From positions 1,550,001-1,614,000 of the forward strand of contig NZ_PYFT01000001.1 of assembly GCF_003023845.1 (NCBI RefSeq): 64,000 nucleotides of DNA, written 5' to 3'. This document shows, in pieces, positions 4,983 to 49,196 of the stretch. The DNA is from Adhaeribacter arboris. Its GTDB lineage: Bacteria; Bacteroidota; Bacteroidia; Cytophagales; Hymenobacteraceae. How positions within the stretch are numbered: the stretch's first letter is position 1; each line of letters begins with the position of its first letter. The notes under the pieces are model-generated. The model made no database searches, had not been told where the DNA came from, and saw nothing but the letters and a program-made list of their open reading frames with translations. The position numbers and the translations under genes were made by a program.

Positions 4983-5168
4983 ACCAGTTTGGCTGTTGAG
5001 GGCCTTTTAGCGTTCCGGTGCCGACGCAGGAGGCAGGGCGCAACGGCGTGAGCCAAGGTTCGCTAAACCGCCCGAAAGAGCCAAACGAGGCCTGCCGGCC
5101 AGGAGGAAAACGGGTTACTTCTCAAACCGCATGCGCACCTAAATCTGGAAACGGAAACTGACTCCACC
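4983..5168 (+). repeat. Dispersed ~180-bp repeat, copy A
   Basis: Copy A of a four-member family (others at 28986-29167, 34779-34960, 49022-49196). It starts ACCAGTTTGGCTGT, continues GGGCCTTTTAGCGTTCCGGT, has AGCCAAGGTTCGCTAAACCG in the middle and ends near GACTCCACC. No convincing reading frame covers it. It sits in the gap between the convergent MFS and GH31 genes (4839-5303). The rest of that gap shows nothing else clear. Confidence 0.8.
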
Positions 5169-5303
5169 GAAAAGACCTTTATTCAATTAAAATCTTCTTT
5201 CGCTTTTAGCCTAGTAAAAGAGATTGTAACTACTTCATACTATTTGGTATAAGTCTCAAAGTAGTATCTTTCATATTACTTGGAAAGAACAAGCTACGCC
5301 CTG

Positions 5304-7451
5304 TTAGTTGGAAGGAGTCATAAACTCCCAACGAATGTTCTTATAACGAAAATTCTTATTATTCGGCTTTGGAGTATTTCCTTTCAATAAACCTTTCTTA
5401 TTTTTAGTAACTTCCAGTTTGGTCCAGGTATAAGCGCCTTGTTCGTAATCAAAGGTTTCGCCATCATCGTCGTACAAATTCCAGCTACCTTCCTTCTCTC
5501 CGTAATGCCGGATGGTAAGAGGTAATACCGTTGCTTTAGTGGGGCTATGTAAAGCTGGTGGAATAAGCGGGATAATGCCGCCGTCTTTTACAAAAAGCGG
5601 CATTTTATTCCTCTCCGGCGTAACTCGAATTACTTCCCCGGCACCGGCCAATTTCCCGGAGTAAAAATCAAACCATTTGCCCGGCGGTAAAATAACTTTC
5701 CGGCTTTTTTCCCCGGCAAAAAGCGGAGCCACCAGTAAATAATCACCCAACATATACTGGTCTTTCATGTCTTCTTTCAGCGCCAAACCGTAAGGATTAT
5801 CGGTGGAGTTTAAGGCAGCCTTTTCCGATTTAGCGGCAAAAGAAAAACCTTCTACCAGGTTCATGGCTCGTATGGGTGGCTTTCCTTCATAGTGGTACTG
5901 CGCAAACGTGGTGTATAAATACGGTAGTAATTGCATCCGGAGTAACATTACTTGTTTTATTGGTTCGGCCACTGCCGGGTACGTCCAGGGCTTGGTACCA
6001 TCCGCCCAGGCGTTTAGCATGGCCATCGGTGAAAAACATACCGTTTGCATCCGACGCAGCCATTCTTCGTCGGTTTTAGAAGAACGGGCTTCGGGAGTCC
6101 ACAAAACCCCGATAAAAGAACTGTTGCACAATGCCGTAATAAAATCGCGGTGATCGTAATAATCATTATAGATAACAAAGGGTAAATTAGAAGCCCCCGC
6201 ATTAGAAGCCCGCACCAAACCGTAGGTACGCGTATTCTGTTCCCGAAACCAACCATCCACCATTTTCTGAAATTTCAAGCCGTAAATCTGCCGCATTTGC
6301 TCGGCGGGTATACCCGACGGAAAAGTTGCTACATCCGGCCAAAGCCATTTATCATAGCCATCTACCTCATCTACTTTATACCCGGCTACTCCCATTTTTA
6401 AATGTTCGGCCGTAAATAGTTTTCTGTATAAGTCCTGAACGGGCTTTAAAGTAAAATCGGGTACCAAACCAACCCATACGGTATGCGAAGCAGTATAAGG
6501 TTTAATTACTTCATAAACCGGAGATTTAGAACCTGGGTAAGGGTTAATCCATAAATTAACGCGAATATTCTTTTTTAATAACTCGTTTAAGAATGGTTTA
6601 GGCTGCGGAAAACGGGTTTTATCCCACACGAAGGAATTCGGATAAGAGGTGCTTTGCCAACCCGGTTCCAAGCCTACAAAACTTAATGGATAGCCCTTGC
6701 TCTCAAAAGCAGTTACTTCTTCCAGAATTTGTTCGTCGGTAAATAAAGTAGGTGTTCGATGGGTAAAACCCAAGCCCCATTTAGGCGGCAAAGTACCTCC
6801 ACCGTTGAACAAATTATAGCGCTGCACTACTTCTAAGGCGTTTTTACCGGCAAATAGGTAAACTTTCACGCCCTTAGCCGGCACCAAAACTTCTACCGCG
6901 TCCGAATACGGCTGCGCTTCCCAACCAGCCTGAGGATCGTTCCGATTTCGTTCGGGTGGAAAATCTTTGCTATCCGTCCGGACGCTAGTTCCGGCATAAA
7001 CCGTAAGGTAACGCGCCGAGTTTACCAGGATGCCGTAGCCTTTATCGGACACATAAAAAGGAACCGGCGCGTGCGTGCGGCCATCGTCTTGGCCATTATA
7101 ATGGTCCACGTGCAGGTTTTTGATGGTTCCTCGTTGCTGAACGGTTTTAAAATTCAACCCTAAACCAAATAATTGTTCTTCTTTCTGTAAGGGAAAGTGC
7201 AGGTAGGTCTTACCATCCGTCACTTCGGCCTTGCTTGATTTTATTTGCTCCGGAAAAAGAGGCTTACCTAACTTTTGCAGCGCATCCGTACGGGGTTTCG
7301 TTTCGGCTATCTGCAATAAGTCAATTCCTTCGGGATCACCAATAATTGATTCCCAAACGCCGGGTGTAATTTCTCGCCAATTTAATTCCTGTTTTTGGGC
7401 GTAAACGGTAGTAATGCAAAAAATAATCAGAAGGAAGACTAGTTTTTTCAT
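5304..7451 (-). CDS. Glycoside hydrolase family 31, exported alpha-glucosidase-like
   Basis: The 715-residue protein has a signal peptide (about residues 1-19, ending VYAQ) and is probably periplasmic or surface-bound. An N-terminal beta-sandwich is followed by the GH31 barrel. WINPYPG marks the barrel strand ahead of the active site, and GVAGYKVDEVDGYD carries the likely catalytic aspartate. A late beta-sandwich with a YDDDGETFDYEQG stretch is typical of the C-terminal part of GH31 enzymes. Members release terminal alpha-linked glucose, xylose or galactose. It is the last gene of the leftward block that includes the GH109-like gene and the GHMP kinase. The exact linkage is not deducible. Confidence 0.87.
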   Translation of the reverse strand: MKKLVFLLIIFCITTVYAQKQELNWREITPGVWESIIGDPEGIDLLQIAETKPRTDALQKLGKPLFPEQIKSSKAEVTDGKTYLHFPLQKEEQLFGLGLNFKTVQQRGTIKNLHVDHYNGQDDGRTHAPVPFYVSDKGYGILVNSARYLTVYAGTSVRTDSKDFPPERNRNDPQAGWEAQPYSDAVEVLVPAKGVKVYLFAGKNALEVVQRYNLFNGGGTLPPKWGLGFTHRTPTLFTDEQILEEVTAFESKGYPLSFVGLEPGWQSTSYPNSFVWDKTRFPQPKPFLNELLKKNIRVNLWINPYPGSKSPVYEVIKPYTASHTVWVGLVPDFTLKPVQDLYRKLFTAEHLKMGVAGYKVDEVDGYDKWLWPDVATFPSGIPAEQMRQIYGLKFQKMVDGWFREQNTRTYGLVRASNAGASNLPFVIYNDYYDHRDFITALCNSSFIGVLWTPEARSSKTDEEWLRRMQTVCFSPMAMLNAWADGTKPWTYPAVAEPIKQVMLLRMQLLPYLYTTFAQYHYEGKPPIRAMNLVEGFSFAAKSEKAALNSTDNPYGLALKEDMKDQYMLGDYLLVAPLFAGEKSRKVILPPGKWFDFYSGKLAGAGEVIRVTPERNKMPLFVKDGGIIPLIPPALHSPTKATVLPLTIRHYGEKEGSWNLYDDDGETFDYEQGAYTWTKLEVTKNKKGLLKGNTPKPNNKNFRYKNIRWEFMTPSN

Positions 7452-7539
7452 GAAAGAAAGCCTAAACAGTAAAATTAAAAAGCTTTTTAGCTACGCTGAA
7501 TGCAAGAAAATTAATGGATAAAGTTAGTGTAAAATAAAA

Positions 7540-7594
7540 CTGTCCTTCCAAAAACTATACTGCTGAATGGCAATATAGATTTTTGGAAGGACAG
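7540..7594 (-). terminator. Long stem-loop, likely terminator after the GH109-like gene
   Basis: CTGTCCTTCCAAAAACTATA at 7540 pairs with TATAGATTTTTGGAAGGACAG ending at 7594 around a 14-base loop. On the minus strand it is followed by a T-rich run (TTTTATTTTAC). It lies between the GH109-like gene (upstream) and the GH31 gene (downstream), so it could also attenuate read-through into GH31. Confidence 0.7.
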
Positions 7595-7671
7595 ATAATC
7601 AGCTAGTTTTAATTTTATTCTTCCGGGATGAAGAAAAATTTAATAATTAGATCAATTTCAGAAATCACAAA

Positions 7672-9030
7672 TCAAACTGCAAAAACCGGTTTCCGGTTTT
7701 TCCATTTGCCGCGGGTAAAATCCGGAATCGGAATAGAGGCGGAATTCTGAGCAATGGATTGTTCCGATAAAGGACTAATGGCCGACCACGCCGCGGCATC
7801 GTACACATCAATGGGTGGGGCTGTCTTGTTCCGGACGGCTTCCACAAAATCCCGCATCACGAAATAATCCATTCCGCCGTGGCCGGCGCCTTCGGCTTCT
7901 TTCTCGAATTGCTGCCAAAATTTATGGTCGTATTTTTTCATGTACTCGGTATCTGGTTCCCACTCATCGTTGGTTTTGCTCACTTTCTCGATGTAAATTT
8001 TGTCGCCATCATCCATCCAGAGGCCGTTGGTGCCTTGCACCCGGAAGCCCAAAGAATACGGGCGCGGCAAGTTGGTATCGTGGGTAATTAAAATGGTTTC
8101 GCCGTTAGCGCATTTTATCATGGTTTGCACGATATCGCCCAGCTTAAATTTCACTTTGGCATTCGGGTGGTTTTCGCCGCCGTTATCGACAATGTATTTA
8201 TGCAAGCCCAAACTTTTGGTAGCCATAGAAGTTAAGTACAAAAACTGGTTGCCCCGGTTAATGTTAATCATTTCGGCAACTGGTCCCAGGCCGTGGGTCG
8301 GATACAAATCGCCGTTACGGTCAACGGAGTGTTGCGTCCGCCATTTGGCTTCGCTAAAGGCTTTAGGCCCAAATTCTACCCCTACGCCGGCCGGTTGTTT
8401 TCCGTCGTTAAATTTAATACCCCGTAAGTCGTGCTGGTAACCGCATTGCAGGTGCACTATCTCCCCGAATAAGTTTTGGCGCACCATATTCAAAACGGCC
8501 ATTACATCGCGACGGTAACACACATTTTCGAGAATCATACAATGCGCACCCGTTTTTTCGAAGGTATCCACCAAAGCCCATGATTCTTCTAGTTTCACCG
8601 TAGCCGACACTTCTACCCCCGCGTATTTACGGGCATTCATGGCAGCAAGCGCCATGGGCACGTGCCATTCCCAGGGAGTAGCAATAATGACCCCGTCCAC
8701 ATCATCGCGCTTTACTAAGTTCTCGAAATCATGATCGTTTTTACCGTAAACTTTGGCTTCTTTGTGGCCTGCTTCGCGTAATATTTTTTGAGTGGCTGCA
8801 ATAGCTGCCGGATCAATATCGCAAATGGCGGTTATAGTTACTCCCGGGAAAGCCAAAGCATTATGCACATGATTGCGACCCCGCAAACCCACTCCAATAA
8901 ATCCTAAACGTACTTTAGGAGCCGCTTTTTGGGCTAATAAACCCGAAGGTAAAAAACTGGTGGCCGCTGTAGCCGCTAAAACCGTGGAACTCTTCCGGAT
9001 AAATTCTCGCCGGTTAACAAAATTTGTCAT
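7672..9030 (-). CDS. Gfo/Idh/MocA-family protein with Tat signal, GH109-like
   Basis: The 452-residue protein starts with a twin-arginine export signal (NRREFIRKSS, then a hydrophobic Ala-rich stretch to about residue 34). The Rossmann segment reads GFIGVGLRGRNH. The stretch YPTHGLGPVAEMININRGNQ matches the region that carries the catalytic histidine in GH109 enzymes, which use NAD to remove alpha-N-acetylgalactosamine. The family has broader members, so the substrate is uncertain. Export by Tat fits a protein folded around a tightly bound NAD. Neighbours are a GHMP sugar kinase 185 bases upstream and a GH31 enzyme downstream, consistent with glycan breakdown followed by sugar phosphorylation. 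Confidence 0.82.
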   Translation of the reverse strand: MTNFVNRREFIRKSSTVLAATAATSFLPSGLLAQKAAPKVRLGFIGVGLRGRNHVHNALAFPGVTITAICDIDPAAIAATQKILREAGHKEAKVYGKNDHDFENLVKRDDVDGVIIATPWEWHVPMALAAMNARKYAGVEVSATVKLEESWALVDTFEKTGAHCMILENVCYRRDVMAVLNMVRQNLFGEIVHLQCGYQHDLRGIKFNDGKQPAGVGVEFGPKAFSEAKWRTQHSVDRNGDLYPTHGLGPVAEMININRGNQFLYLTSMATKSLGLHKYIVDNGGENHPNAKVKFKLGDIVQTMIKCANGETILITHDTNLPRPYSLGFRVQGTNGLWMDDGDKIYIEKVSKTNDEWEPDTEYMKKYDHKFWQQFEKEAEGAGHGGMDYFVMRDFVEAVRNKTAPPIDVYDAAAWSAISPLSEQSIAQNSASIPIPDFTRGKWKNRKPVFAV

Positions 9031-9215
9031 TTGTTTGCAGATAATTTAAGTTTAAAATTGGTCCAATGAGAGTTTAGTTTCCATTGAACCTACTTGCGGA
9101 TGTATTCTGATTCTATCTGGAGCCAAGTGGAGGTTACGTACAAATTTGCTCCATTCCTTTTGGCTTCCGGCGGTCATCAAACCTGACATGGTTATACGTA
9201 ATAATTAGATTTAGC

Positions 9216-10313
9216 TCAAACTTCCTTTACCACTGGGGCTGTAAGGGGTTCTAACCTAGTACCTTCATCAACAGTAATAATATAAGCTTTACCGCCTTGC
9301 TGCTCAATGGCTTCTACTACTGCTTCGGGTTGCTCGGGCGCGTACGCAAACATACAGCCGCCGCCGCCCGAACCATTAATTTTGGCCCCTAGGGCACCAG
9401 CCCGTAGCGCTGCTTCAATCATAGCGTTTATTTTAGGGGTAGACACTCCTTTAGCATCCCGCAAATTATCCTGGTGTTGGTTTAACAAGCTACCGAGCGC
9501 CTCCGAATCTAATTTCCCTTGTTTTAGCAATTGTTTGGCTTCGCGCAAGATATCCCGATCCGATAAATTACTTTTAAAAAGTAACATTTCGTCATCCGTC
9601 AGCACCGAATGGTACTCGGGCGCACTGCTTAAAGGAGTTACGTGCAAATCAAAACCCGGATGGTACGCTTTAATTTTCCGGAGCGCCTCTAGCATACCAA
9701 ATTTTACTCTTTTTAAAATATTTAAAGTATCTTTTGGTTGTTGAGAATCGCCTAAAACAAAGGTACCGAGCGAGGGCCGGAACGTTTCGACGTAAATTTT
9801 AGGTTGCGATTCCAGGTAAATAATATTCCCCATGGCCGTGGAATAATGATCCATCATGCCGCCGGGTTCGCCAAATTCCAGCACTTCGGCCTGGTAAGCC
9901 AGCTCCCCAATTTCAGCCTGCGACTTTTGGATGGGTTGATCGGCGGTTTGTAAAAGAAAATTTATCCAGGAAACCTGTAAAGCCGAAGAACTCGAAGTAC
10001 CCGAATTAATGGGAATATTCCCCCGCACCGTTACCTCCAAGCCCCGCGAAAAACTAATTTTTTCCTGTCGTTGAATAATATTTATAGCACTCCGGAAATA
10101 ATCGCGCGGTTTTTCATACGTAAGCTCGGGGGCTAAATCGAAAACTTCCTGGTCATTAATATCCGGTAAATGCAGCAGTATTTTTTTATCCGGTCGATGC
10201 TGACCCGTCAAAAAAATCCGTCGGGAAATAGCGGCGGCAATAACCGGTAAGCCCAGGTAATCCTGGTGTTCTCCGAACAAGCAAATCCGGCCGGGAGTAG
10301 AAACACGGATCAT
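9216..10313 (-). CDS. GHMP-family sugar kinase (galactokinase-like)
   Basis: The protein (365 residues from ATG at 10313) should phosphorylate a free sugar in the cytoplasm with ATP. Near the start it has GRICLFGEHQDY, close to the galactokinase signature GEHxDY. Next comes the GHMP ATP loop INSGTSSSSAL, then GEPGGMMDHY, and the C-terminal motif KINGSGGGGCMFAY. A TTG start at 10340 would add nine residues ahead of this motif and is less likely. It is divergent from the LacI-type regulator, with an operator-like palindrome between them. It probably acts on a monosaccharide released by the GH31/GH109 proteins. Galactose, an amino sugar and a uronic acid all remain possible. Confidence 0.82.
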   Translation of the reverse strand: MIRVSTPGRICLFGEHQDYLGLPVIAAAISRRIFLTGQHRPDKKILLHLPDINDQEVFDLAPELTYEKPRDYFRSAINIIQRQEKISFSRGLEVTVRGNIPINSGTSSSSALQVSWINFLLQTADQPIQKSQAEIGELAYQAEVLEFGEPGGMMDHYSTAMGNIIYLESQPKIYVETFRPSLGTFVLGDSQQPKDTLNILKRVKFGMLEALRKIKAYHPGFDLHVTPLSSAPEYHSVLTDDEMLLFKSNLSDRDILREAKQLLKQGKLDSEALGSLLNQHQDNLRDAKGVSTPKINAMIEAALRAGALGAKINGSGGGGCMFAYAPEQPEAVVEAIEQQGGKAYIITVDEGTRLEPLTAPVVKEV

Positions 10314-10500
10314 ATTATTTGAATCAGGAGTGAACAACAATTTCGTAGCTTTAAGATTTAGTTTAACCTAGCCAAAAACAGCCTGGCCGGTATTCTGAAC
10401 GTGAATAGATTTGTTGAATATAAATATAATCCCGTATTTATTCAAGAGAAGGCTGCCGGTAAAAGCTATTCGATGAGCTTAATGAAGGCTATCGGGCTGT

Positions 10501-10512
10501 GCAACCGATTGC
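10501..10512. promoter_or_regulatory. LacI-type operator
   Basis: GCAACCGATTGC fits the palindromic core GCAAnCGnTTGC bound by LacI/PurR-family regulators. It lies between the divergent kinase and lacI-type genes, 95 bases before the regulator's start and just upstream of its -7 box. Confidence 0.6.
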
Positions 10513-10534
10513 GCAAATTACGGCAAAAGGAAAG

Positions 10535-10542
10535 TATTTTTG
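10535..10542 (+). promoter_or_regulatory. Bacteroidota -7 promoter element for the LacI-type regulator
   Basis: TATTTTTG matches TAnnTTTG. A weak -33 candidate (ATTG at 10508-10511) falls inside the operator, so binding of the regulator would block the promoter (inference). Confidence 0.5.
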
Positions 10543-10606
10543 ATTTACTAGCTTTATTGCCCGGAAGGCTGTATTTTTAAACAATCATCCTTTTACTCCC
10601 TCTGCT

Positions 10607-11611
10607 ATGGCCAATCATACCCCTACCATGAAAGAAATTGCCAAACATTTGGGGGTGTCGGTTACAACGGTTTCCCGGGCTTTGCAAAACCATCCGCGGA
10701 TTGGCTTACGTACCCGCGAACAAGTACACGCTTGGGTACAAAAAATAGGGTACGTTCCTAACTCGACGGCCATTTATTTAAAGAAGAAGTGCACTTTTAA
10801 TATTGGGGTGGTATTGCCTTTTTTAACCGAGCAGTTTTTTTCGCTGGCCATTTCCGGCATTGAAGATACCACCATGAGCCACGGCTACAGCGTATTGGTC
10901 GTGCAATCCCGGAATAATTTTGAGCGGGAACGAACCGCTATCACCTCACTCATTAAACACGGGGTAGATGGGATAATTGTATCGGTAGCTTCGGAAACGC
11001 AAACTTACCTGCACCTCGACGAAGCCCAGAAACACGGGGTTCCGGTAGTATTATTTGACAGGGTAATTAAGCGGGCTCCCAACAGCTGCGTGTATTCCGA
11101 TATTGTGGTGGGAGCTTACGAGGCCATTGCTTTTCTGATTGCCCGCGGTCTTACCCGGATTGCTTTATTAAACGGCCCGAACACTTTGCAGGCCACCGAA
11201 GAACGTTTGAAAGGCTACGTGAAAGCTTTGCAGGAACACCAGATTTCAATTAACATTCACTACATTAAAAGTGTGAACCTTACTAAGGAAGATACCATCC
11301 GGAAAACGCACGAATTATTAAACTTACCCGAAGTACCACAAGCCATTTTGGCCTTTCATGATTACGTGGCGTTGGATGCCATGCAAGTTTGTAAAGAACG
11401 GGGTTTGCACATTAATAAAGATATTTCGTTCGTTAGCTTTTCTAATCTTTCTTTTTGCTCTTACCTCGACCACCCTCCTATTGCTTCCATTGAACAGTTT
11501 CCGTACGAAATGGGCGAGAAAGCCGCTCAAATTTTAATGAACGCCCTCTCGCATCCGGAAACAGCTACCCGGCAGGAAGTAGTAATTAAATCGAAGCTGG
11601 TGCAACGTTAG
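10607..11611 (+). CDS. LacI-family transcriptional regulator
   Basis: The 334-residue protein has the LacI helix-turn-helix at residues 4-30 (TMKEIAKHLGVSVTTVSRAL), a hinge region and a periplasmic-binding-protein-like effector domain (NIGVVLPFL start, FDRV and VSFSN motifs). Length is normal for the family. It is transcribed away from the GHMP kinase, and an operator with the family core lies in the shared gap, so it likely controls itself and the GHMP kinase/GH109/GH31 block in response to a sugar. The effector is unknown. Confidence 0.92.
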   Translation: MANHTPTMKEIAKHLGVSVTTVSRALQNHPRIGLRTREQVHAWVQKIGYVPNSTAIYLKKKCTFNIGVVLPFLTEQFFSLAISGIEDTTMSHGYSVLVVQSRNNFERERTAITSLIKHGVDGIIVSVASETQTYLHLDEAQKHGVPVVLFDRVIKRAPNSCVYSDIVVGAYEAIAFLIARGLTRIALLNGPNTLQATEERLKGYVKALQEHQISINIHYIKSVNLTKEDTIRKTHELLNLPEVPQAILAFHDYVALDAMQVCKERGLHINKDISFVSFSNLSFCSYLDHPPIASIEQFPYEMGEKAAQILMNALSHPETATRQEVVIKSKLVQR

Positions 11612-11742
11612 GAAAGCACGCACTCATTAATACGCAACAAAGCTCGCTGGCCTGAAATCAACATACGAACCCTTTGCTGCATCAGCACCTTTGATCAGAA
11701 AAAGGAATTAGCTTCACCAATAAACATTTATTTATCTTTTAG

Positions 11743-11762
11743 GTTAGAGTTTAAATTCTAAC
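11743..11762. promoter_or_regulatory. 20-bp near-perfect palindrome upstream of the quinone-oxidoreductase-like gene
   Basis: GTTAGAGTTTAAATTCTAAC is symmetric at 18 of 20 positions and lies about 55 bases upstream of the -7 box at 11818. It may be an operator for an unidentified regulator. Other TTAGA/TCTAA words nearby (11766-11797) give the region a repeated look. Confidence 0.35.
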
Positions 11763-11817
11763 AACTTAGATTGGGTGTTAGAATCTATCATTTAGAAACT
11801 AATAAAATAGTGTGCTG

Positions 11818-11825
11818 TAACTTTG
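11818..11825 (+). promoter_or_regulatory. Bacteroidota -7 promoter element
   Basis: TAACTTTG fits TAnnTTTG. TTTA at 11791-11794 is a possible -33 element. The box overlaps an alternative TTG start at 11823, which argues that translation begins at the ATG at 11856. Confidence 0.6.
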
Positions 11826-11855
11826 CCAAGATATTCTAAACGGAAAATTGAAACT

Positions 11856-12821: not shown

Positions 12822-12828
12822 CTAAAGA

Positions 12829-12859
12829 GCAAGCACAAGGAAAAATATCTTGTTCTTGC
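12829..12859. terminator. Stem-loop between convergent genes
   Basis: GCAAGCACAAG and CTTGTTCTTGC pair with one mismatch around a short A-rich loop, just after the MDR gene stop. A clear T-run is lacking, so its role as a shared terminator is tentative. Confidence 0.4.
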
Positions 12860-12949
12860 GGAGGAAATAAGCAAGAAAGTACGCAAGAGTATCCATACTA
12901 AAGGAAAGCCTGGTCTCTCCTATCTTGATACTTATGCTTTTTTTATAAC

Positions 12950-13594: not shown

Positions 13595-13725
13595 AAACTT
13601 TCAACCCGAACAAATATTCTTTATTGCACTTTGTTTTAGATTAGTTTAGCGGGTATTTCCGGCAGAAATCAAGGTTGTATTCAGCTTCTACTAGTGCTCT
13701 TCCAGATTAAAAATTAAAAATGAAG

Positions 13726-13797
13726 AATTAGAAATTTAGGCTTTAAAGAGTTTCAGGCCAGAATAAATACTTATTTCCTTTCTCCGAATTGAATTGG
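13726..13797. repeat. 72-bp dispersed repeat, copy 1
   Basis: This begins AATTAGAAATTTAGGCTT and runs to about GAATTGAATTGG. It aligns over its whole length with 59986-60057 at roughly three of four positions. It lies directly downstream of the FkbM gene. Confidence 0.65.
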
Positions 13798-13804
13798 TCG
13801 TGCA

Positions 13805-24337: not shown

Positions 24338-24578
24338 TTTACCAGTAATTTTGGCATTAGAAAAATTAAGGAAAGTTGCTTAGGAGCAGTAAGGTTAGTC
24401 GGTAAAAGTTGATGAATCAGTAAAACTTATTTTGAAGAGATAGCTTATTGGATAAATAATTATTTGTTTTTGAAGCCTGTACCATTCATTAAACATTATT
24501 GCTGATTCGGATTGATCCGTAACTGGATTACGTCTCGTCTTGATGTTTACTTTTTAAATCAATTTGATTTTAGACTAA

Positions 24579-28745: not shown

Positions 28746-28811
28746 GATAGTCCGTAGTTGTTTAACTATTAGCTTTGGAGCACTGTTAAGCCTTCAGTGT
28801 TTTAGCACCAC

Positions 28812-28942
28812 TATGGCGCGGAAGTTACTTCCGTGTTTTTCTATTTAAAGCAAGTCCTTGGTAGGCTAACAACTAAAAGAGTGCTTTACAAAGCAGCGAA
28901 GGTAGTGGTGGGGCAAGGCCCGGAAGTAACTTCCGCGCCATA
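28812..28942. repeat. 131-bp palindromic element with perfect 22-bp ends
   Basis: TATGGCGCGGAAGTTACTTC begins the left arm at 28812-28833, and 28921-28942 is its exact inverted copy over 22 bases. Each arm is itself nearly symmetric (CGGAAGT(T/A)ACTTCCG). The interior has no reading frame. It resembles a MITE or REP-type element and lies between convergent genes, next to repeat copy B. Confidence 0.75.
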
Positions 28943-28985
28943 ATGAGCCATCTTAAAAGAATTCAGAAGGCTAAGAGTAAACTTC

Positions 28986-29167
28986 ACCAGTTTGACTATG
29001 GAGGGCCTTTTAGCGTTCCGGTGCTGCGGAGCAGCATGGCGCAACGCAGTGAGCCAAGGTTCGCTAAACCGCCCGAGAGAGTGAAACGAGGTCCGCCGGT
29101 AAGGAGGCTAACAAGGACTGATGAACCGTATCCGCACCTAGAAATGGAGATTGGAACAGGCTCCATC
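28986..29167 (+). repeat. Dispersed ~180-bp repeat, copy B
   Basis: This is in the same orientation as copy A. The left end reads ACCAGTTTGACTATGGAGGG, the middle AGCCAAGGTTCGCTAAACCG, and the right end AGGCTCCATC. A small GCTGC/GCAGC hairpin is formed at about 29023-29035. It lies in the convergent gap before the TonB-receptor gene. An open frame of 77 codons through it appears to be chance. Confidence 0.85.
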
Positions 29168-29203
29168 AAAAATTAATTAATAAACTGTATTCAATTATTA
29201 CGT

Positions 29204-34650: not shown

Positions 34651-34778
34651 AAAAGTGCTTAAATTTTTTCCCTTGCCAGTAGATAAAATTATAGATTTAG
34701 CGGTTTAGTTGCGGGTTTATCTGAGTAATCTAATACTAAATTTCAGTATAAAAAAGACGAACTAAGGGCAGTTTAACT

Positions 34779-34960
34779 TTGGAGCCTTTTCAAGTCTCCA
34801 GGCAATGGTGCTATCTTATTTGAGAAGTACCCTGTTTGCCTCATGGCCGGCGAGCCTCGTTTAACTCTCTCGGGCGGTTTAGCGAACCTTGGCTCGTTGC
34901 ACTACGCCATGCTGCTGGGCAGCACCGTAACGCTAAAAGGCCCTCCATAGTCAAACTGGT
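34779..34960 (-). repeat. Dispersed ~180-bp repeat, copy C
   Basis: This copy is inverted relative to A and B. On the plus strand it starts TTGGAGCCTTTTCAAGTCTC and ends AAAAGGCCCTCCATAGTCAA followed by ACTGGT. The ends thus form an imperfect inverted repeat (TGGAGCCTTTT against TGGAGGGCCTTTT). It occupies most of the gap between the ClC and Nei-like genes (34651-35087). Confidence 0.85.
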
Positions 34961-35087
34961 GGCAATTCTATTTAGCTAACTAATTCAAATTAAAACCAGT
35001 TAATATGTCTTATGTGTTTCAATTCGGTATAAATACAAACTTAACAATGAAAGTCATATTTGTATTTTTTATTCTCTATAAGTTAAG

Positions 35088-35831: not shown

Positions 35832-35859
35832 AAATTAACTATTAAAAGTAATCCTTTTT

Positions 35860-36790: not shown

Positions 36791-36821
36791 TACTTTTCGT
36801 AAAAATTAATCAATCCAATCT

Positions 36822-39086: not shown

Positions 39087-39103
39087 TACATCAACTTTCA
39101 GTA

Positions 39104-39779: not shown

Positions 39780-39787
39780 TAATTTTG
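39780..39787 (+). promoter_or_regulatory. Bacteroidota -7 element of the TlpA-like gene
   Basis: TAATTTTG fits TAnnTTTG and lies 44 bases before the start codon. No clear -33 TTTG is seen upstream. Confidence 0.45.
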
Positions 39788-39831
39788 TCTGAAAGCAGGT
39801 TGTTTTTCAACGTTTTACTTAATTACTGTAT

Positions 39832-41091: not shown

Positions 41092-41163
41092 CATTTTTTA
41101 AATTTGCCATTAAACAGTGTATTACATTCCGTTTTTTAGTACACGTAAACTTTCGTTACCCGT

Positions 41164-42264: not shown

Positions 42265-42329
42265 TTGATTTTGTAAAATATCAAAGTATTAAGTCCGAAC
42301 CATCAGAAATCTTAAGTTGTATTTTTGAG

Positions 42330-42342
42330 GTCTGTGGACTAT
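42330..42342 (+). repeat. 13-base word GTCTGTGGACTAT
   Basis: Identical to 52157-52169 and to the reverse complement of 28733-28745. It lies in the short gap between the convergent acyltransferase and polyprenyl synthase genes. Confidence 0.5.
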
Positions 42343-42359
42343 GGAACTCCAACTCTGGC

Positions 42360-43337
42360 TTATTTATCGCGTTCAATTGTGAACCGGATCAGCTGTTCGA
42401 GCGAAGTACGGGAAGGCGAAGGTTCGAAGGTGTGCAGAATTTCCAAGGCTTCGTTGGCAAACCGGTGCATGAGTGCAATAGCGTATTCCAGCCCTCCGGA
42501 ATTTTTTACAAAATCAATTACCTTGGCTACTACCTGGTTTTTGCCGTTGTTATTTTTAACGTTATAAATCATTTGCCGCTTCGTAAGCCAGCTTGCCTGC
42601 TGCAACGCATAAATGAGGGGCAGGGTCATTTTTTTTTCTTTAATATCAATCCCTACTGGTTTACCAATTTCAGCGGTACCATAATCAAATAAATCATCTT
42701 TAATCTGAAAGGCAATACCCACTTTTTCGCCGAATAAACGGGCTTTCTCAATGTGAGCCAAATCGGCACCGGCCGAGGCCGCTCCTACTGCGCAGCAGGA
42801 TGCAATAAGAGAAGCCGTTTTTTGCCGGATAATATCAAAATAAACTTCTTCGGTAATATCCAGGCGACGGGCTTTTTCAATTTGCAGTAATTCGCCTTCG
42901 CTCATTTCGCGGACGGCGTTGGATACAATCTTTAACAAATCAAAATCATTATTATGCAGCGAAAGCAAAAGTCCTTTTGAAAGCAGATAATCGCCCACTA
43001 ATACAGCTATTTTATTTTTCCAGAGAGCATTTACTGAGAAAAATCCCCGGCGGTAATTAGCATCATCTACTACATCGTCGTGCACCAGGGTAGCGGTATG
43101 CAGTAGTTCAATGAGGGCGGCGCCGCGGTAGGTAGCATCGGAAATGCCGCCGGCAAACAAGTTAGCCGAAAAGAAAACGAACATTGGCCGCATTTGCTTG
43201 CCTTTTCGTTTTACAATGTAGCTCATTATCTTATCGAGCAATAACACTTTAGAACGCATCGATTGGCGAAATTTTGTTTCAAATTCGCGCATTTCCACTG
43301 CGATCGGGGCTTGTATCTCGTCTAAGGTTATATTCAT
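42360..43337 (-). CDS. Polyprenyl (long-chain) diphosphate synthase
   Basis: The 325-residue protein extends isoprenoid chains in the cytoplasm, most likely for menaquinone side chains or cell-wall lipid carriers. The first aspartate-rich motif DDVVDD is at residues 87-92 and the second at 214-218 (DDLFD). GKQMRPMF, near residues 46-53, binds the diphosphate. Product length depends on residues before the first motif; no call is made here. It is a single gene whose leader lies in the 280-base gap to 43615. Confidence 0.9.
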   Translation of the reverse strand: MNITLDEIQAPIAVEMREFETKFRQSMRSKVLLLDKIMSYIVKRKGKQMRPMFVFFSANLFAGGISDATYRGAALIELLHTATLVHDDVVDDANYRRGFFSVNALWKNKIAVLVGDYLLSKGLLLSLHNNDFDLLKIVSNAVREMSEGELLQIEKARRLDITEEVYFDIIRQKTASLIASCCAVGAASAGADLAHIEKARLFGEKVGIAFQIKDDLFDYGTAEIGKPVGIDIKEKKMTLPLIYALQQASWLTKRQMIYNVKNNNGKNQVVAKVIDFVKNSGGLEYAIALMHRFANEALEILHTFEPSPSRTSLEQLIRFTIERDK

Positions 43338-43568
43338 TTTGCAGGCGGCACAATATTACAATGCCCACTTATTGAATCCAAGTATCTGAAGGCAAAATAT
43401 CAAAACGGAAAGTTCTTCTAAGGAATAGGAGAAAATGAATGGCAAGTATATTATAGCCAGCAAAACGTTTTTAGTATTTTACTTCCCGAAACAATTTTAA
43501 TAATATGCTGCCTCCCCTTACTTGTTTTTAATGAAGATTTCTGGAAGGTGTAAAAAATATATTTGCAT

Positions 43569-43598
43569 AAAAAAAGCCTCCGGTTGGAGGCCTTTTTA
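43569..43598 (-). terminator. Terminator after the sorbosone-dehydrogenase-like gene
   Basis: On the minus strand, GGCCTCCAACCGGAGGC forms a hairpin followed by a T-run (TTTTTTTATG). It starts 17 bases after the stop at 43616. Confidence 0.85.
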
Positions 43599-43615
43599 TG
43601 AATGAAATTTAAATT

Positions 43616-44977
43616 TTATTTCGGACGAACTTGCCACAGGGTGTTGGCGGCGTCATCGGCTACTAATAAAGCTCCGCTTGGCAGAACCGCTAAACCTACT
43701 GGTCGGCCATATACTTCGCTTTTATCCGCATCGGCAATAAAGCCGGTTAAAAAGCTTTCGGGCTTACCGGCAGGTTTTCCATCTTTAAACGGAACATAAA
43801 CAACTTTATAACCGGCAAATTTAGAACGGTTCCAGGAACCATGCTGACCCACAAAGGCCCCGTTGCGGTACTTCTCCGGAAATAGTTTACCGTCGTAAAA
43901 AGTAAGGCCTAAGCTAGCCGTATGGGAGCCCAGCGGAACATCAGGCACCAACGTTTTTTTCACCATTTCGGGTTGTTGTTCTTTTTCCATGCGAGGGTCC
44001 GGGTGCGGGCCCCAGTAGGCAAATGGCCAACCGTAAAAGCCGCCTTCGCGCACGCTGGTTAAATAATCGGGTACCAAATCATCGCCTAGGTTATCACGTT
44101 CGTTTACTACGGTGTATAAGGTTTTGGTACCCGGCGCCCAGTCCATACCTACGGGGTTACGCAAACCGCTGCCGAAAACCCGTTCCCCAGAGCCATCCGG
44201 GTTTATTTCCAGAATATTAGCGCGCCGTTTTTCGTTATCCAAGCCGTTTTCGGCCACATTACTGCCCGATCCTACCGAAATATAAATCTTCGAGCCATCG
44301 GCATTCGCCACTATGTTACGGGTCCAGTGATTATTGTATCCGCCGGCGGGTAGGTCCAGGATTTTCTTACCCTCACCGGTGATGTGGTCTTGCCCGGTTT
44401 TATAAGGATATTTCCAGAGGCCGTCGGTATTTGCTACGTAAAAAGCATCGTTCAAAACCAGCATGCCTAAGGGCTGGTGCAGGTCTTCCAGAAAAGTAGT
44501 ATGCACTTCTGGCTTGCCGTCTTGGTTCGTATCCCGGAATAAGGTAATACGGTTAGCGCTACCGCCGGTATTTACCTTGGTACTTTTGCCGGTGCCCACA
44601 TTTTGCACTTTTTTAAAAATACTTTCTTCGGTACTGGATTCCGCTACTAAAATATCGCCGTTGGGGGCCACGTAAATCCAGCGGGGATTGCGCAATTTTT
44701 CGGCAAATTTAGTAACCGTAAAACCAGCCGGAGCTGTGGGTGTTTTACCCGCAGGCCAACCAATTACTTTACTGTTTTTAGCCGTAGGAGGCGTGGCAAA
44801 CGGCTTAGGCAAGGTGTCGTTTTCAGCGCTGGTGGCAGTGGCCGCAGTACTATCGCTGGAAGCAGCAGAGTCGGTATTGGTAATGGATTCGGTTTTCTGG
44901 TTAGAATTGCAAGCGGTAAAAGCAAGAGCAAACAAAATACTACAAAGGTTTAACGGAAATTTTCTCATAGCAGGCAT
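43616..44977 (-). CDS. PQQ-dependent sugar/sorbosone dehydrogenase-like lipoprotein
   Basis: The 453-residue protein has a lipobox (FTACNSN, Cys near residue 22; a second ATG at 44968 is equally possible) and an Ala/Ser/Thr-rich linker, so it is anchored in the periplasm. The remainder is a six-bladed beta-propeller of the soluble glucose/sorbosone dehydrogenase type (NPRWIYVAPNGDILVAESS, RNPVGMDWAPGT, FVGQHGSWNRS), where the last contains the typical HGSWNR. Such enzymes oxidise aldoses with PQQ or act as binding propellers. Substrate and cofactor cannot be verified by eye. Confidence 0.85.
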   Translation of the reverse strand: MPAMRKFPLNLCSILFALAFTACNSNQKTESITNTDSAASSDSTAATATSAENDTLPKPFATPPTAKNSKVIGWPAGKTPTAPAGFTVTKFAEKLRNPRWIYVAPNGDILVAESSTEESIFKKVQNVGTGKSTKVNTGGSANRITLFRDTNQDGKPEVHTTFLEDLHQPLGMLVLNDAFYVANTDGLWKYPYKTGQDHITGEGKKILDLPAGGYNNHWTRNIVANADGSKIYISVGSGSNVAENGLDNEKRRANILEINPDGSGERVFGSGLRNPVGMDWAPGTKTLYTVVNERDNLGDDLVPDYLTSVREGGFYGWPFAYWGPHPDPRMEKEQQPEMVKKTLVPDVPLGSHTASLGLTFYDGKLFPEKYRNGAFVGQHGSWNRSKFAGYKVVYVPFKDGKPAGKPESFLTGFIADADKSEVYGRPVGLAVLPSGALLVADDAANTLWQVRPK

Positions 44978-45325
44978 TTAAGTTTAAATTCATAATCATT
45001 TTTTGTACAAAATAAGCTTTAGAAGTACATAGCAATATATAGCTCATTTTGTTTGAAATTAAATACGAGTAACCCGACAAGTCGTTAAAATAAATTCCCG
45101 AAGTTTTATTATTTTTTTACATCAAGCCTCTTTCCATAGCATTAATGAGGAGATTAGTATGTCTTTAAACTTATTATCCATTATTTGGCATTGATTTTTG
45201 ATTTTATTTGTAAATAGCTGTTAATAAGGTAAGGCGCTGTTAAACTCCTTAGATTAAAAATTTTTACTAATACCGATAACTCATAATTATCTTTCAGTGC
45301 TCTATCGGACAGAAAAATCCTAAAA
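44978..45325. other. Divergent non-coding gap
   Basis: The gap separates the sorbosone-dehydrogenase-like gene (minus) and the glpD-like pseudogene (plus). TATCTTTC at 45289-45296 is a one-mismatch -7 candidate for the latter. No other structure seen. Confidence 0.4.
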
Positions 45326-46883
45326 TGAACAGAAATTCGGTCTTAGAAATAATACAAAAAGATATTACCTGGGATGTAATTATAATTGGGGGGGAGCTAC
45401 CGGCATCGGCGCAGCCTTAGAGTCATCAACCCGCGGATACAAAACTTTATTGCTCGAGCAATCGGATTTTACCAAGTCTACTTCCAGTAAAAGTACTAAA
45501 CTGGTGCACGGTGGGGTACGTTACCTGGCGCAAGGTGATATTAAACTAGTACGGGAGGCAAGTTTAGAACGGGGGTTACTTTGCCGCAATGCGCCCCATC
45601 TGGTCAAAAATCAAACTTTTATTATTCCGAGCTATAGTTGGTGGGAGCGTCCTTGGTTTACCATAGGTTTAAAATTATACGATTTACTAGCTGGCAAGCT
45701 CAGTCTGGGCCCATCGGTGGCCATTTCTGCTAAAGAAACTATTGCCTATATACCTACCATTAAAACGCAAAAACTACGGGGGGGTGTACTATACCACGAC
45801 GGGCAATTTGACGATTCAAGACTGGCGATTAATGTCCTACAAACTGTTTTTGAACAAGGTGGTTACGCTATCAATTACCTGCTGGTAACAAATTTGCTAA
45901 AAGATGAAAAAGGTAAATTAATCGGGTTGCAGGCTTACGATGCAGAAAATAACCAGCCGTATACGATACGCGGTAAAATAATTTTAAATGCTACCGGCGT
46001 TTTTACCGACCAAATCCTGAAAATGGACAATCCGGGTAATGCAACTTCTATTCGCCCGAGCCAAGGCGTGCATTTGGTATTAGATAAAGAGTTTTTACCC
46101 GGCGACCACGCGCTTATGGTTCCCAAAACGGACGATGGCCGGGTCTTGTTTTTAGTACCCTGGCACGGCAAAGTGATTGTGGGTACTACCGATACGCCTA
46201 TTACCGAATCTTCCCTGGAACCACGGGCCTTGGAAAGTGAAATTGATTTTATTTTAACTACCGCCGGACGCTATTTAACCCGACCTCCGCAAAGGGCGGA
46301 TGTACGCAGTGTATTTGCCGGCTTACGCCCGCTAGCCGCAGTAAACGGGAATTCTCAACGCACCAAAGAAGTATCGCGCAGTCATAAAATTATGGTTGCC
46401 CCATCCGGATTAGTATCTATCTTAGGCGGCAAATGGACTACTTTCCGGAAAATGGCCGAAGAGGTAATGGACGTGGTAGAAACAACCGCCAACTGGCCAC
46501 CTAAACCTTCGGTAACCCGGGAGTTAAAAGTACACGGGGCTGCTACTCCCGATCCTTTGAATATATTAAGTAATTATGGCACCGATGCGACTCGTATTCA
46601 GGCATTAATAGCCGAGCGGCCGGAATTAGAAGAATATCTAAGCAGTCATTTAAAAATTATAAAAGCGCAAGTAATTTGGGCGGTACGCGAAGAAATGGCC
46701 CGCACCGTAGAAGATGTGCTCGCCCGCCGAGCACGGGCCTTGTTGTTAGATGCCCGCGAAAGCATACGGTTAGCGCCCGAAACGGCTCGCTTAATGGCGC
46801 AGGAACTAGGCTATTCTGAAAAATGGCAACAGCAGCAAGTACAACAATTTACGCAGGTAGCACAAGGTTATTTATTAACATAA
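45326..46883 (+). pseudogene. glpD: Glycerol-3-phosphate dehydrogenase/oxidase, two frameshifts near the start
   Basis: The product should oxidise glycerol-3-phosphate with FAD at the inner membrane. From ATG 45326 the frame reads MNRNSVLEIIQK and then breaks. It continues one frame over as DITWDVIIIGG and breaks again, after which GATGIGAALESS and the rest (LVHGGVRYLAQGDIKLVREA and onwards) are intact. Both breaks fall in homopolymers: an A-run at 45357-45360 (four, five expected) and a G-run at 45388-45394 (seven, eight expected). Restoring one A and one G gives a 519-residue protein. The breaks destroy the FAD-binding glycine loop. A short form starting at TTG 45450 would lack this loop. 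Sequencing error is an alternative. Confidence 0.8.
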
Positions 46884-47084
46884 CCGTTCGTTGCCGGTAG
46901 CACCCGTATGCAATCAGGAACCACTTTACTTATATTTCAGCTGCCTTTAGTGGGTACTTTCAGGATAGAAAGTAATGATAATAAGTTTATGTCAGGCTTA
47001 TCCGGCGGAAAGTACTAATTAACCAACCTTGAGAGGCATACTTTTTCAGCCTAACCTACTTTTCTCTCCTTCGAATCTAGTTTA

Positions 47085-47792
47085 TCATTCTTTTAAATTA
47101 TCCGGCAACTCTTTTATGGCGATATTACGGAAACGGTGCATAGCGCCAGGGGCCCAGGAATCCAGAATATTCCAGCCTACAACCGTGGACGAATACAAAG
47201 CCGTCCAATGAGATTGAAAACCAATCATACCTTTGGTAGCGCCGGCCATAAAATCGTTTTTAGGTTGAGTTATGTCCCACATTTCCACGTTGTTTATCCA
47301 TAAAGTAATACGCGGCACCTCGCCTACCATCCTGATCCGGAAAGAATTCCAATCGTTGGCTCGCCAAACTTTGTTCCGGCCATTTGTTTTGGCTTCCCGG
47401 CCTACCGGCATGCGTTCGCCGAGCAAGTTACCGGTACTGCCGGCAGCTTCGTCCAACTCAATCTGGTAAGCAATGCCGCTTTCGGAAGATCGGATAAAAA
47501 TACCACCGTTGGTGAAAGAATCTATTCTGGCTTCGAGATAAAGCTCAAAATTTTTAAATTTTTTGTAGCTCAACAGCACTCCTCCCTGCCCGTAAGGATT
47601 CTGTCGGAGTACAATAGTACCCTTCTCAACCCGCACATCAGGGGTGGTACCCTGGTGGGTGGTGCGGCTAATGTGCCAGCCTTGCAAGTTTTTCCCGTTA
47701 AAAATAGATTTAAATCCAGCCGGTATTTGCGCCCAAGCCGGAGAAATTAATAGATTAGAAAGAAGTAGAATCAGAATTTTTTTTATTTGCAT
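47085..47792 (-). CDS. DUF1080 (3-keto-disaccharide hydrolase-like) exported protein
   Basis: The 235-residue protein has a signal peptide (to about 22, AWAQ) and the DUF1080 jelly-roll: GFKSIFNGKNLQGWHIS near the start, GGIFIRSSESGIAYQIELDE and RIRMVGEVPRITLWINNVEMWD later. Family members bind or split 3-keto-glycosides made by Gfo/Idh or GMC oxidoreductases. In this window such partners are several genes away. The protein likely acts in the periplasm. Single gene, minus strand. Confidence 0.85.
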   Translation of the reverse strand: MQIKKILILLLSNLLISPAWAQIPAGFKSIFNGKNLQGWHISRTTHQGTTPDVRVEKGTIVLRQNPYGQGGVLLSYKKFKNFELYLEARIDSFTNGGIFIRSSESGIAYQIELDEAAGSTGNLLGERMPVGREAKTNGRNKVWRANDWNSFRIRMVGEVPRITLWINNVEMWDITQPKNDFMAGATKGMIGFQSHWTALYSSTVVGWNILDSWAPGAMHRFRNIAIKELPDNLKE

Positions 47793-48075
47793 GTGCTGAA
47801 TTGGATTGGTAGAACGAACCTTGTAAATTTCTACTAATTGCGGCCGCTAATACTCAGAATAGCTACCTCCTATTAGTTTAAAGGCTACTTTTGTTAGTTA
47901 CAAACTGGTTACTATGGTTAGACACCAGATACGCTTTGCTATACCGGCGCCAGAGGAAGCTAGAAGTATCAACAGAACTAAAATTTTAAATATAGACAAC
48001 AATACCACAAAACTTTAGCCCAACCCAGGAAAACATGCCCGATTATATAGCAACGCATAACTTTCAACTCTTAAC

Positions 48076-48933
48076 TCACTTGTTTGCTTTCATCACTAGC
48101 CTAACACCGATATCAAAACCATTCCCAGGGCCAGCGGCATGGGTCAGGTACGTGGCATTTTTTACGTCGCCGGTGAAAGAAGCGCCTTTTAAAACGTGTT
48201 CTTTACCGGTACGGGGCGGTACCGGATCGGCAAATATTTTTTCGTTATAATAATCCTGCACCCATTCCCATACGTTGCCCAACATGTCGTAAATACCCCA
48301 GGAATTCGGCTTTTTCTGTCCAATCGGGCTGGTTGTTGTACCACCCAAAACGGCTACTTCGTTTATTTCGGACCAAGGAATGTCTTCTGTGGCACCGGCT
48401 CGGGCGGCGTACTCCCATTCAAATTCGGTAGGTAAGCGGTAAGTGTGTTGTTTATCTTGTGCATTTAATTTTTTCACAAAAGCTTGTGCCTCCTCCCAGG
48501 TTATATTTTCGACGGGGTGTTTAGCGGCGTTATCTTTCACCTTATTTTTTTGAAATAAAGCCGGATTGCTGCCCATAATTTTTTGCCATTGTTCCTGGGT
48601 TACTTCGAATTTACCAATGTAATAAGGCTGATTCAGGTTCACCGTAAAACCCGGTCTAGCCGATTTTTGCGCCATTGCAGCGGCAGTTTTGTAAGCGCTC
48701 GGGGGTAAAGTTGGTCGGTCTAGTTTCTCTTTGGGCGGCTCTCCTACTCCCGGCTGAAACTTCCCCACCACCATACTGCCCGGTTTTACTAGCACGAACT
48801 CCATCCCGAACTTATTGGTGAAGGTGGCGGGTTGAGCCAAGAGTTTTAATGGTAACAGCAAGAGGATGAAACCAATTTTTATTACTGGTTTGATGGAAAA
48901 CGTATGATAACATATTAAAGCTAAATCGAACAT
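48076..48933 (-). CDS. Formylglycine-generating-enzyme (SUMF1)-like exported protein
   Basis: The 285-residue protein has a hydrophobic N-terminal segment (IGFILLLLPLKLLAQ) used as signal or anchor; the 15 residues before it are unusual, and a later start may be real. The FGE fold is recognisable from MEFVLVKPG, YYIGKFEVTQEQWQKIM, HPVENITWEEAQAFVKKL, YRLPTEFEWEYAARAG and GNVWEWVQDYY. The two active-site cysteines of true FGEs are not evident, so this is probably a binding or nonheme-enzyme relative rather than a sulfatase activator. Repeat copy D lies upstream. Confidence 0.85.
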   Translation of the reverse strand: MFDLALICYHTFSIKPVIKIGFILLLLPLKLLAQPATFTNKFGMEFVLVKPGSMVVGKFQPGVGEPPKEKLDRPTLPPSAYKTAAAMAQKSARPGFTVNLNQPYYIGKFEVTQEQWQKIMGSNPALFQKNKVKDNAAKHPVENITWEEAQAFVKKLNAQDKQHTYRLPTEFEWEYAARAGATEDIPWSEINEVAVLGGTTTSPIGQKKPNSWGIYDMLGNVWEWVQDYYNEKIFADPVPPRTGKEHVLKGASFTGDVKNATYLTHAAGPGNGFDIGVRLVMKANK

Positions 48934-49021
48934 TTTTGGTTTACAATAAGATTTAATCCGAAGCTTCCCTCCTATAGATTAGGAGGGGCAGGGGTGATTG
49001 TCTTTATCATTATGTTTTTAC

Positions 49022-49196
49022 TTGGAGCCTTTTCCAGTCTCCAGGCACGGGTGCTATCTAGTTTGATGAGTAACCAGCTTGCCTCCTGGCCGGTGGGCCC
49101 CGTTTGGCTCTTCCGGGCTGGTCTAAGCTTCCTTCTCTCCTGCGTCGAGGTGCCTCGGCACCGGAACCTTAGAAGGCCCTCCACAGCCAAACGGGT
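49022..49196 (-). repeat. Dispersed ~180-bp repeat, copy D
   Basis: This is the most diverged copy, in the orientation of copy C. The outer parts are conserved (TTGGAGCCTTTTCCAGTCTC at the left, AGAAGGCCCTCCACAGCCAA at the right) while the centre has changed. It lies in the 459-base gap 48934-49392, which otherwise shows no gene. Confidence 0.8.

What the first reader, a model, noticed from the sequence alone, without database searches (positions are those of the whole stretch)
4983..49196. Four-copy ~180-bp dispersed repeat with imperfect terminal inverted repeats
Copies at 4983-5168 and 28986-29167 (plus), 34779-34960 and 49022-49196 (minus) share long conserved blocks (CCAGTTTG ends, GGGCCTTTTAGCGTTCCGGT, AGCCAAGGTTCGCTAAACCG). 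Their ends read TGGAGGGCCTTTT and, inverted, TGGAGCCTTTT. The inner part can fold (TAGCG..CC against GG..CGCTA, with a GCTGC/GCAGC hairpin in copy B). All four lie at the 3' side of a gene and none encodes protein. It may be a non-autonomous mobile element, a 3'-end processing or structured RNA element, or both. The blocks and orientation are read directly; function is inference.
Basis: partly seen in the sequence, partly recalled or inferred. Interest (0 to 1): 0.72.

Follow-up and report, generated by a model that had tools for sequence, protein, structure and literature searches.

The report
Folded repeat family scattered between genes
The four repeats belong to a large family of folded, non-coding DNA repeats that sits between genes, mostly near gene ends, in several related bacterial genera, keeps its shape while its letters change, and at some sites seems to have traded its central hairpin with other copies.

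Summary
A covariance model of 30 own-genome copies finds at least 143 matches in the window's genome, 1 to at least 150 in seven congeners, and matches in 60 of 204 genomes of the family, 4 of 6 genera, one being Pontibacter, Hymenobacteraceae. The fold is well supported: 23 of 30 pairs show double changes, 96.2% of cells pair against 85.8% shuffled and 26-49% slid, and other genera fold alike. Real outer tips (TWA-TACC) bound 300-310-bp units: 14 of 80 own copies reach both. Others form head-to-head doublets. Of 7 sites compared first between two congeners, 5 are kept and 2 look decayed; at 5 of 8 orthologous sites the G002 core is closer to at least 19 of 48 other G002 copies than to its ortholog, suggesting core exchange. 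No transposase was linked. Best reading: a structured, non-autonomous intergenic repeat of MITE/REPIN/BOX type, probably folding as plus-strand RNA; mobilisation is inferred. No Rfam match; eight literature searches listed nothing on it.

The parts
4983..5173 (+). copy A, structured core, linker and 3' hairpin
   Evidence: R1 187.5 bits
5239..5252 (+). outer right tip ACTATTTGGTATAA of copy A (no left tip found, so probably a truncated unit)
   Evidence: 14 of 14 match to the tip motif
28986..29172 (+). copy B, structured core, linker and 3' hairpin
   Evidence: R1 186.9 bits; BLAST query
34731..35032 (-). copy C, 302-bp unit from left tip TTATACCGAATTGAAAC to right tip GAAATTTAGTATTA
34773..34960 (-). 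copy C, structured core, linker and 3' hairpin
   Evidence: R1 193.7 bits
49016..49196 (-). copy D, core of the second helix subtype (TAAGGTTCC/GGAAGCTTA), linker and 3' hairpin
   Evidence: R1 172.3 bits, not a training sequence; alignment
11622..11723 (+). possible decayed remnant
   Evidence: R1 19.1 bits, E 4.6e-4 with a roughly calibrated model; sequence read
24464..24568 (-). possible decayed remnant
   Evidence: R1 19.6 bits, E 3.5e-4 with a roughly calibrated model; sequence read

Best explanation
The copies belong to a family of non-autonomous, non-coding, folded intergenic repeats. SHOWN: a ~120-nt core closed by helix P1 (GTTTGGC/GCCAAAC here, GTCTTTGGGT/GCCCGAAGAC in other genera) with nested helices, then a GGCC(NNNN)GGCC hairpin, a variable linker and a 3' hairpin; pairing kept through double changes; at least 143 copies in this genome; outer tips on a minority of copies; close pairs head-to-head. 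INFERRED: units were once spread by a transposase acting in trans on the outer ends; since then copies mostly stay in place, and cores are exchanged between copies by ectopic conversion or template switching through the hairpin. The fold probably forms in plus-strand RNA when neighbouring genes are read through, which would explain why copies sit mainly at gene ends.
For: Copy number and spread. Fold: 30 consensus pairs, 17 with double changes, in 30 copies; 23 of 30 in 150 copies, 96.2% of cells paired against 85.8% in shuffles and 26-49% when slid (that alignment is fitted to the structure); of the 16 column pairs with the highest APC-corrected mutual information 9 are at least 78% canonical; the same topology is predicted separately in 12 loci of other genera. 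Strand: GU/UG 109 cells against AC/CA 54 (20 pairs favour GU, 8 AC, 2 tie; p 0.036), and three mostly U-G pairs in other genera (9, 10 and 11 of 12). Ends: arm profiles reach the 5' tip in 20 of 80, the 3' tip in 19 of 80 and both in 14 of 80 own copies (6 of the 8 seeds of each profile are among those 80); tips flanked by TWA at 29 of 78 doublet ends against 15 of 326 control stretches. Doublets: 8 of 8 close pairs head-to-head in the own genome; related spacers in groups of 15, 7, 7 and 2 among 39 doublets. Place: 7 of 163 copies between divergent genes. Core exchange: at L253/L307 the core is 80% identical to its ortholog but 100% to another G002 copy, while the tail is 80% and the next 60 nt 89% identical to the ortholog; in 5 of 8 site pairs at least 19 of 48 other G002 copies are closer than the ortholog.
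Against: No transposase could be tied to the element: one weak Y1_Tnp gene about 6.8 kb from the nearest listed copy, and the repeated DDE_Tnp_1 insertion sequence has an unrelated TIR. Flanking TWA trinucleotides agree in 5 of 8 doublets that have them at both ends, where 4 are expected by chance, so a target duplication is not shown. Of 7 G001 elements followed first in G002, 5 are kept and 2 look decayed (the decayed ones judged by eye): no recent jump seen. The own-genome arm profiles reach the tip in 0 of 80 (5') and 2 of 80 (3') copies of other genomes, and the loci read from other genera show no TTATACC ends, so these ends may be lineage-specific. Nearest-core analysis does not show genome-wide homogenisation: 4 of 13 G001 copies have their nearest core in G001, with 49 G002 copies in the set. 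In 3 of 8 site pairs only 0, 0 and 2 of 48 copies are closer than the ortholog. The wobble test is modest and uses a structure predicted on the plus strand.
Confidence: 0.58

Rival explanations
1. A host-useful family of 3'-end RNA elements: each copy, read through from a neighbouring gene, folds to protect, process or terminate the mRNA, and selection at each site keeps the fold.
For: Copies are rare between divergent genes (7 of 163); at 8 orthologous sites paired columns differ at 32 of 470 positions against 191 of 926 unpaired; sites are shared between two species; other genera keep the fold.
Against: Among the flanking ORFs scanned no gene family stands out (at most 4 of 100); 2 of the 7 G001 elements followed first look decayed in G002; the 3' hairpin has no following U-run in the copies printed; copies take all orientations relative to their neighbours. 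Stem conservation may instead come from import of intact cores.
Confidence: 0.2
2. A DNA-structure element: a cruciform or hairpin bound by a nucleoid, gyrase or recombination protein, with no RNA role.
For: Palindromic core, head-to-head doublets and intergenic place resemble BIME-like elements (recalled); some G003 cores also match R1 on the opposite strand.
Against: Wobble asymmetry and mostly-U-G pairs point to one strand as RNA, though modestly.
Confidence: 0.12
3. A REP/REPIN-type element moved by a RAYT (REP-associated tyrosine transposase) that recognises its hairpins in single-stranded DNA.
For: Singles and head-to-head doublets in non-coding DNA, a partly conserved GTAGCTA stretch upstream of the hairpin in this genus, compensatory changes; REPINs are described as inverted REP doublets with spacer and compensatory changes (passages of PMC3116915).
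Against: One weak Y1_Tnp gene in the own genome, not flanked by the element; the core is several times longer than a 20-40 bp REP; GTAG is not constant in Pontibacter (GCGGCTATCG and the like); no orientation switch along the chromosome (p 0.52). RAYTs were not searched in other genomes.
Confidence: 0.07

Closest known systems
BOX elements of Streptococcus pneumoniae (PMC3049150, passages read)
   Same: many copies, modular, predicted RNA fold, low present-day transposition rate, mobilising enzyme unproven
   Different: no BOX sequence was compared; here a multi-helix core with covariation across genera, and head-to-head doublets
REPINs and GTAG/CGTC REPs (PMC3116915 and PMC3733652, passages read)
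   Same: inverted head-to-head doublets with spacer, singlets, compensatory stem changes, extragenic
   Different: core about 120 nt against 20-40 bp REPs; no RAYT beside it in the own genome; no constant tetranucleotide tag
Prokaryotic MITEs such as Correia elements, Chunjie and QMITE (PMC10969869, passages read)
   Same: a minority of copies have inverted outer arms around a non-coding middle, unit of a few hundred bp
   Different: no autonomous partner found, target duplication not shown, outer tips not found on most copies, internal fold conserved across genera
ERIC and other stem-loop families of PMC2267715 (passages read)
   Same: length class; folded intergenic repeats
   Different: no sequence was compared; the terms Bacteroid and Cytophaga do not occur in that paper's main text

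Membership tests
MITE | terminal inverted repeats | tested here: inconclusive
   on a minority: 5' tip in 20 of 80, 3' tip in 19 of 80, both in 14 of 80 own copies; 29 of 78 doublet ends against 15 of 326 control stretches; not seen in the other-genus loci read
MITE | target site duplication | tested here: inconclusive
   TWA on both sides of 8 doublets, agreeing in 5, 4 expected
MITE | autonomous partner with the same TIR | tested here: not met
   only DDE_Tnp_1 and Y1_Tnp were searched, in the own genome only; a tip-pattern scan of the own genome gave no insertion sequence in the loci looked at; other transposase families not tested
MITE | no protein coding | tested here: met
   no ORF of at least 100 aa spans 157 of 163 copies (crude ORF scan)
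REP/REPIN | RAYT gene in the genome flanked by the repeat | tested here: not met
   one weak Y1_Tnp match in the own genome, about 6.8 kb from the nearest listed copy
REP/REPIN | 20-40 bp palindrome with GTAG or CGTC tag | tested here: not met
   core about 120 nt with several helices; tag not constant
REP/REPIN | inverted doublets | tested here: met
   8 of 8 pairs closer than 900 bp head-to-head in the own genome; 39 of 39 in the fetched set, many of whose regions were chosen for holding pairs
any Rfam family | match at gathering threshold | tested here: not met
   0 matches in the 64-kb window; around copy C only CRISPR-DR2 at E 0.63, a chance level
BOX element | boxA-boxB-boxC modular sequence | not tested
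   no BOX sequence was compared
structured RNA (general) | covarying helices beyond controls | tested here: met
structured RNA (general) | transcribed in cells | not testable with these tools
   no RNA-seq held

The most novel reading that the evidence does not exclude
The P1-closed core is itself a copying unit: a folded RNA, or a hairpin of single-stranded DNA, that rewrites the cores of resident copies elsewhere in the genome, homing into existing copies rather than into new sites, so that a population of well over a hundred structured elements is kept intact with few or no new insertions.
Probability: 0.1. Interest if true: 0.85.

Novelty: new variant of a known kind. Interest (0 to 1): 0.52.

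Why it matters
It adds a large folded repeat family in Bacteroidota, in at least four genera, with a fold supported by strong covariation and no Rfam match found. Orthologous sites with differing cores give a direct system for asking how dispersed bacterial repeats stay intact: by selection at each site, by new jumps, or by exchange between copies. It also warns that intergenic covariation in these genomes may flag a repeat rather than a riboswitch or sRNA gene.

Tried and rejected
(2) The five CAATACCTGGTTGAAACG sites as an autonomous element: they lie in an unrelated repeat of about 570 bp. (3) RAYT and DDE_Tnp_1 transposases as mobilisers in the own genome. (4) Association with a gene family (100 of 144 flanking ORFs, long ones cut to 350 codons; 25 of 189 families shown). 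(5) An empty site at window C: the best same-genus relatives of the neighbouring protein are 36% identical. (6) An empty site at a G001 doublet: G002 seems to hold a decayed remnant of the missing copy, judged by eye. (7) Orientation bias along the chromosome (120 of the 143 matches, those at 72 bits or more). (8) Phage or plasmid carriage: no match in the phage and plasmid collections at E 1e-5, none by exact pattern in viral contigs. (9) A genome-specific loop as proof of homogenisation: it occurs in 12 of 49 G002 and 3 of 13 G001 copies. (10) Genome-wide homogenisation (4 of 13). (11) An exact pattern of this genus's core in genome contigs: 0 stretches. Rows dropped: of 168 matches the five weakest were left out (163 used; one search used 160, those at 100 bits or more); 150 of the 168 are in A3. 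Three of the 13 G001 copies (L252:10139, L255:10161, L255:13787) have no G002 site in hand. Literature: eight searches listed no paper that by title or abstract start describes this family; the library lacks most subscription journals. Of those, passages were read in PMC3733652, PMC3116915, PMC2267715, PMC3049150 and PMC10969869; the rest were seen as listings only.
Full report
OBSERVATION. The four copies are present at the stated coordinates and strands. BLAST with copy B gives 40 matches in the window's 7.25-Mb genome (40 of 70 candidates scored) and matches in only 3 of 58 other genomes, all of the same genus. A 30-copy alignment (A2) was folded by RNAalifold and made into covariance model R1. 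R1 recovers copies A-D at 172-194 bits, D not being in the training set, and two weak possible remnants. In the whole genome R1 has 143 matches at E<=0.001 among 150 scored of 987 candidates, a lower bound. Same-genus genomes: G003 150 (all scored candidates), G004 115, G006 83, G002 59, G001 46, G005 5, G007 1. Over the family, 60 of 204 genomes in 4 of 6 genera match, with stricter filters. A pattern taken from genus g3 loci hit 36 stretches in genome contigs, all titled Pontibacter, which is in Hymenobacteraceae. The window's own genus is not named by any search; Adhaeribacter is only my guess.

FOLD. RNAalifold on 30 copies: 30 pairs, 17 with double changes. On 150 CM-aligned copies: 96.2% of cells pair (shuffled 85.8, slid 26-49), 23 of 30 pairs have double changes (shuffled 13.2), covariation score 0.300 (shuffled 0.121); this alignment was fitted to the structure and leans towards it. 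A single copy folds only slightly better than its shuffles (copy B, z -1.27), so the case rests on covariation. Mutual information with APC correction, on the same alignment but without reference to pairs, puts many of the same pairs near the top: 194-200 (98% canonical), 28-94 (90%), 195-199 (91%), 19-104 (96%), 33-89 (96%), 25-97 (98%), 14-109 (92%); 9 of the top 16 are at least 78% canonical, and non-canonical neighbours also rank high, probably because two core subtypes exist. Twelve loci of other genera, aligned and folded on their own, give the same order of helices: P1 of ten pairs, GCGC/GCGC, a long inner helix, and the GGCC hairpin; 10 of 34 pairs have double changes. Wobble asymmetry favours the plus strand as RNA but is modest (109 against 54 cells; p 0.036 over pairs); in other genera three pairs are mostly U-G (9, 10 and 11 of 12).

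UNIT AND ENDS. The core is not the whole unit. In G003 doublets (two cores head-to-head, mostly about 200 nt apart) homology runs past the 3' hairpins to outer tips resembling TWA-TACCAAAT. In the own genome, singles such as L186, L187, L131, L138 and window C are 302-310 bp with complementary outer arms; in L186 and L187 the two arms differ from each other's in matching ways. Profiles of these arms reach the tip in 20 of 80 (5'), 19 of 80 (3') and 14 of 80 (both) own copies, 6 of the 8 seeds of each profile being among the 80, and in 0 and 2 of 80 copies of other genomes, whose arms differ. Tips flanked by TWA occur at 29 of 78 doublet ends against 15 of 326 control stretches; of 8 doublets with TWA at both ends 5 agree, 4 expected if W is random. 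So the tips are real but a target duplication is not shown. Doublet spacers are related in groups of 15, 7, 7 and 2 among 39, which suggests that doublets multiply as units, although one group of 7 is tied together only by partial matches. All 8 pairs of copies closer than 900 bp in the own genome are head-to-head; in the fetched set it is 39 of 39, but most of the 20 regions were chosen because they held pairs.

PLACE. Of 163 copies (168 matches less the five weakest; several genomes), 74 lie between convergent genes, 82 in tandem, 7 between divergent genes (crude ORF calls, set enriched for doublets). No gene family stands out among 100 of 144 flanking ORFs. There is no orientation switch along the chromosome (p 0.52).

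MOBILISER. Y1_Tnp has one weak match in the own genome; the repeated DDE_Tnp_1 element there ends in GTGGCTGTTGCACAAC. Other transposase families, and other genomes, were not searched. Phage, plasmid and viral-contig searches were empty.

HISTORY AT SITES. G001 and G002 are largely collinear at about 80-93% identity around the elements followed. Of 7 G001 elements followed first, 5 have an R1 match at the same place in G002 and 2 do not but show what I read by eye as decayed remnants; at one of these two (L249:7916) G001 also holds about 2.8 kb that G002 lacks. Three more orthologous copies were found among further G002 regions, giving 8 pairs; 3 of 13 G001 copies remain unplaced. Core identity at the 8 sites varies from 73% to 100%, while several G002 cores have a near-identical twin elsewhere in G002. 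In 5 of 8 pairs at least 19 of 48 other G002 copies are closer than the ortholog; in 3 pairs it is 0, 0 and 2. The cleanest case is L253/L307: the next 60 nt downstream is 89%, the tail 80% and the 30 nt upstream 87% identical to the ortholog, yet the core is a different helix subtype, 100% identical to copy L278 and farther from its ortholog than 37 of 48 other copies; further upstream the two genomes part (54% against 48% shuffled) because G002 has about 1.4 kb more there. At L256:10945/L272:3276 the tail is 94% and the flank 90% identical but the core 73%. For L249/L267 and L254/L312 the nearest downstream flanks do not align (49% and 46%), so independent insertions into one intergenic region are not excluded there. 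Both genomes share subtypes, and nearest-core analysis does not show genome-wide homogenisation. Between orthologs, paired columns differ at 32 of 470 and unpaired at 191 of 926 positions; of 24 changed pairs 12 stay paired on both sides, 5 of them by double changes. This fits either selection at sites or import of intact cores.

READING. The evidence is strongest for a dispersed, folded, non-coding repeat family shared by several genera and kept in shape. That it is a mobile element is inferred from dispersal, outer ends and doublets; that it works as RNA is inferred from wobble asymmetry and position. In kind it is nearest to BOX, REPIN and MITE repeats (passages), but it fails tests that define REPINs (RAYT, tag, size) and meets those of MITEs only in part. 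Eight literature searches listed no paper on it.

Noticed in passing
28809-28945: A second palindromic repeat (CTATGGCGCGGAAGTTACTTCCG and its inverse 87 nt apart) lies just upstream of copy B; an 18-base motif from it also occurs twice in L032 (G004) and once each in L172, L174 (G003) and L232 (Pontibacter) among 315 loci.
   Followed up: partly
48961-48996: A CCCCTGCCCCTCCTA..TAGGAGGG hairpin just past the 3' end of copy D also occurs inside the spacers of several doublets.
   Followed up: no
L182-L185 (own genome): Five closely similar stretches of about 570 bp that contain CAATACCTGGTTGAAACG.
   Followed up: partly
L076, L164, L088 (G003): Some doublet cores carry inner helix strands that read like the opposite strand, and R1 matches some cores on both strands, as if the inner hairpin had been inverted or copied between arms.
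   Followed up: no
L158:7698-8411: An IS1-family transposase ORF lies next to the best-scoring own-genome copy.
   Followed up: no
L188 near 2605 (own genome): A 5' part of the unit with a clear outer tip runs into unrelated sequence: a truncated copy.
   Followed up: no
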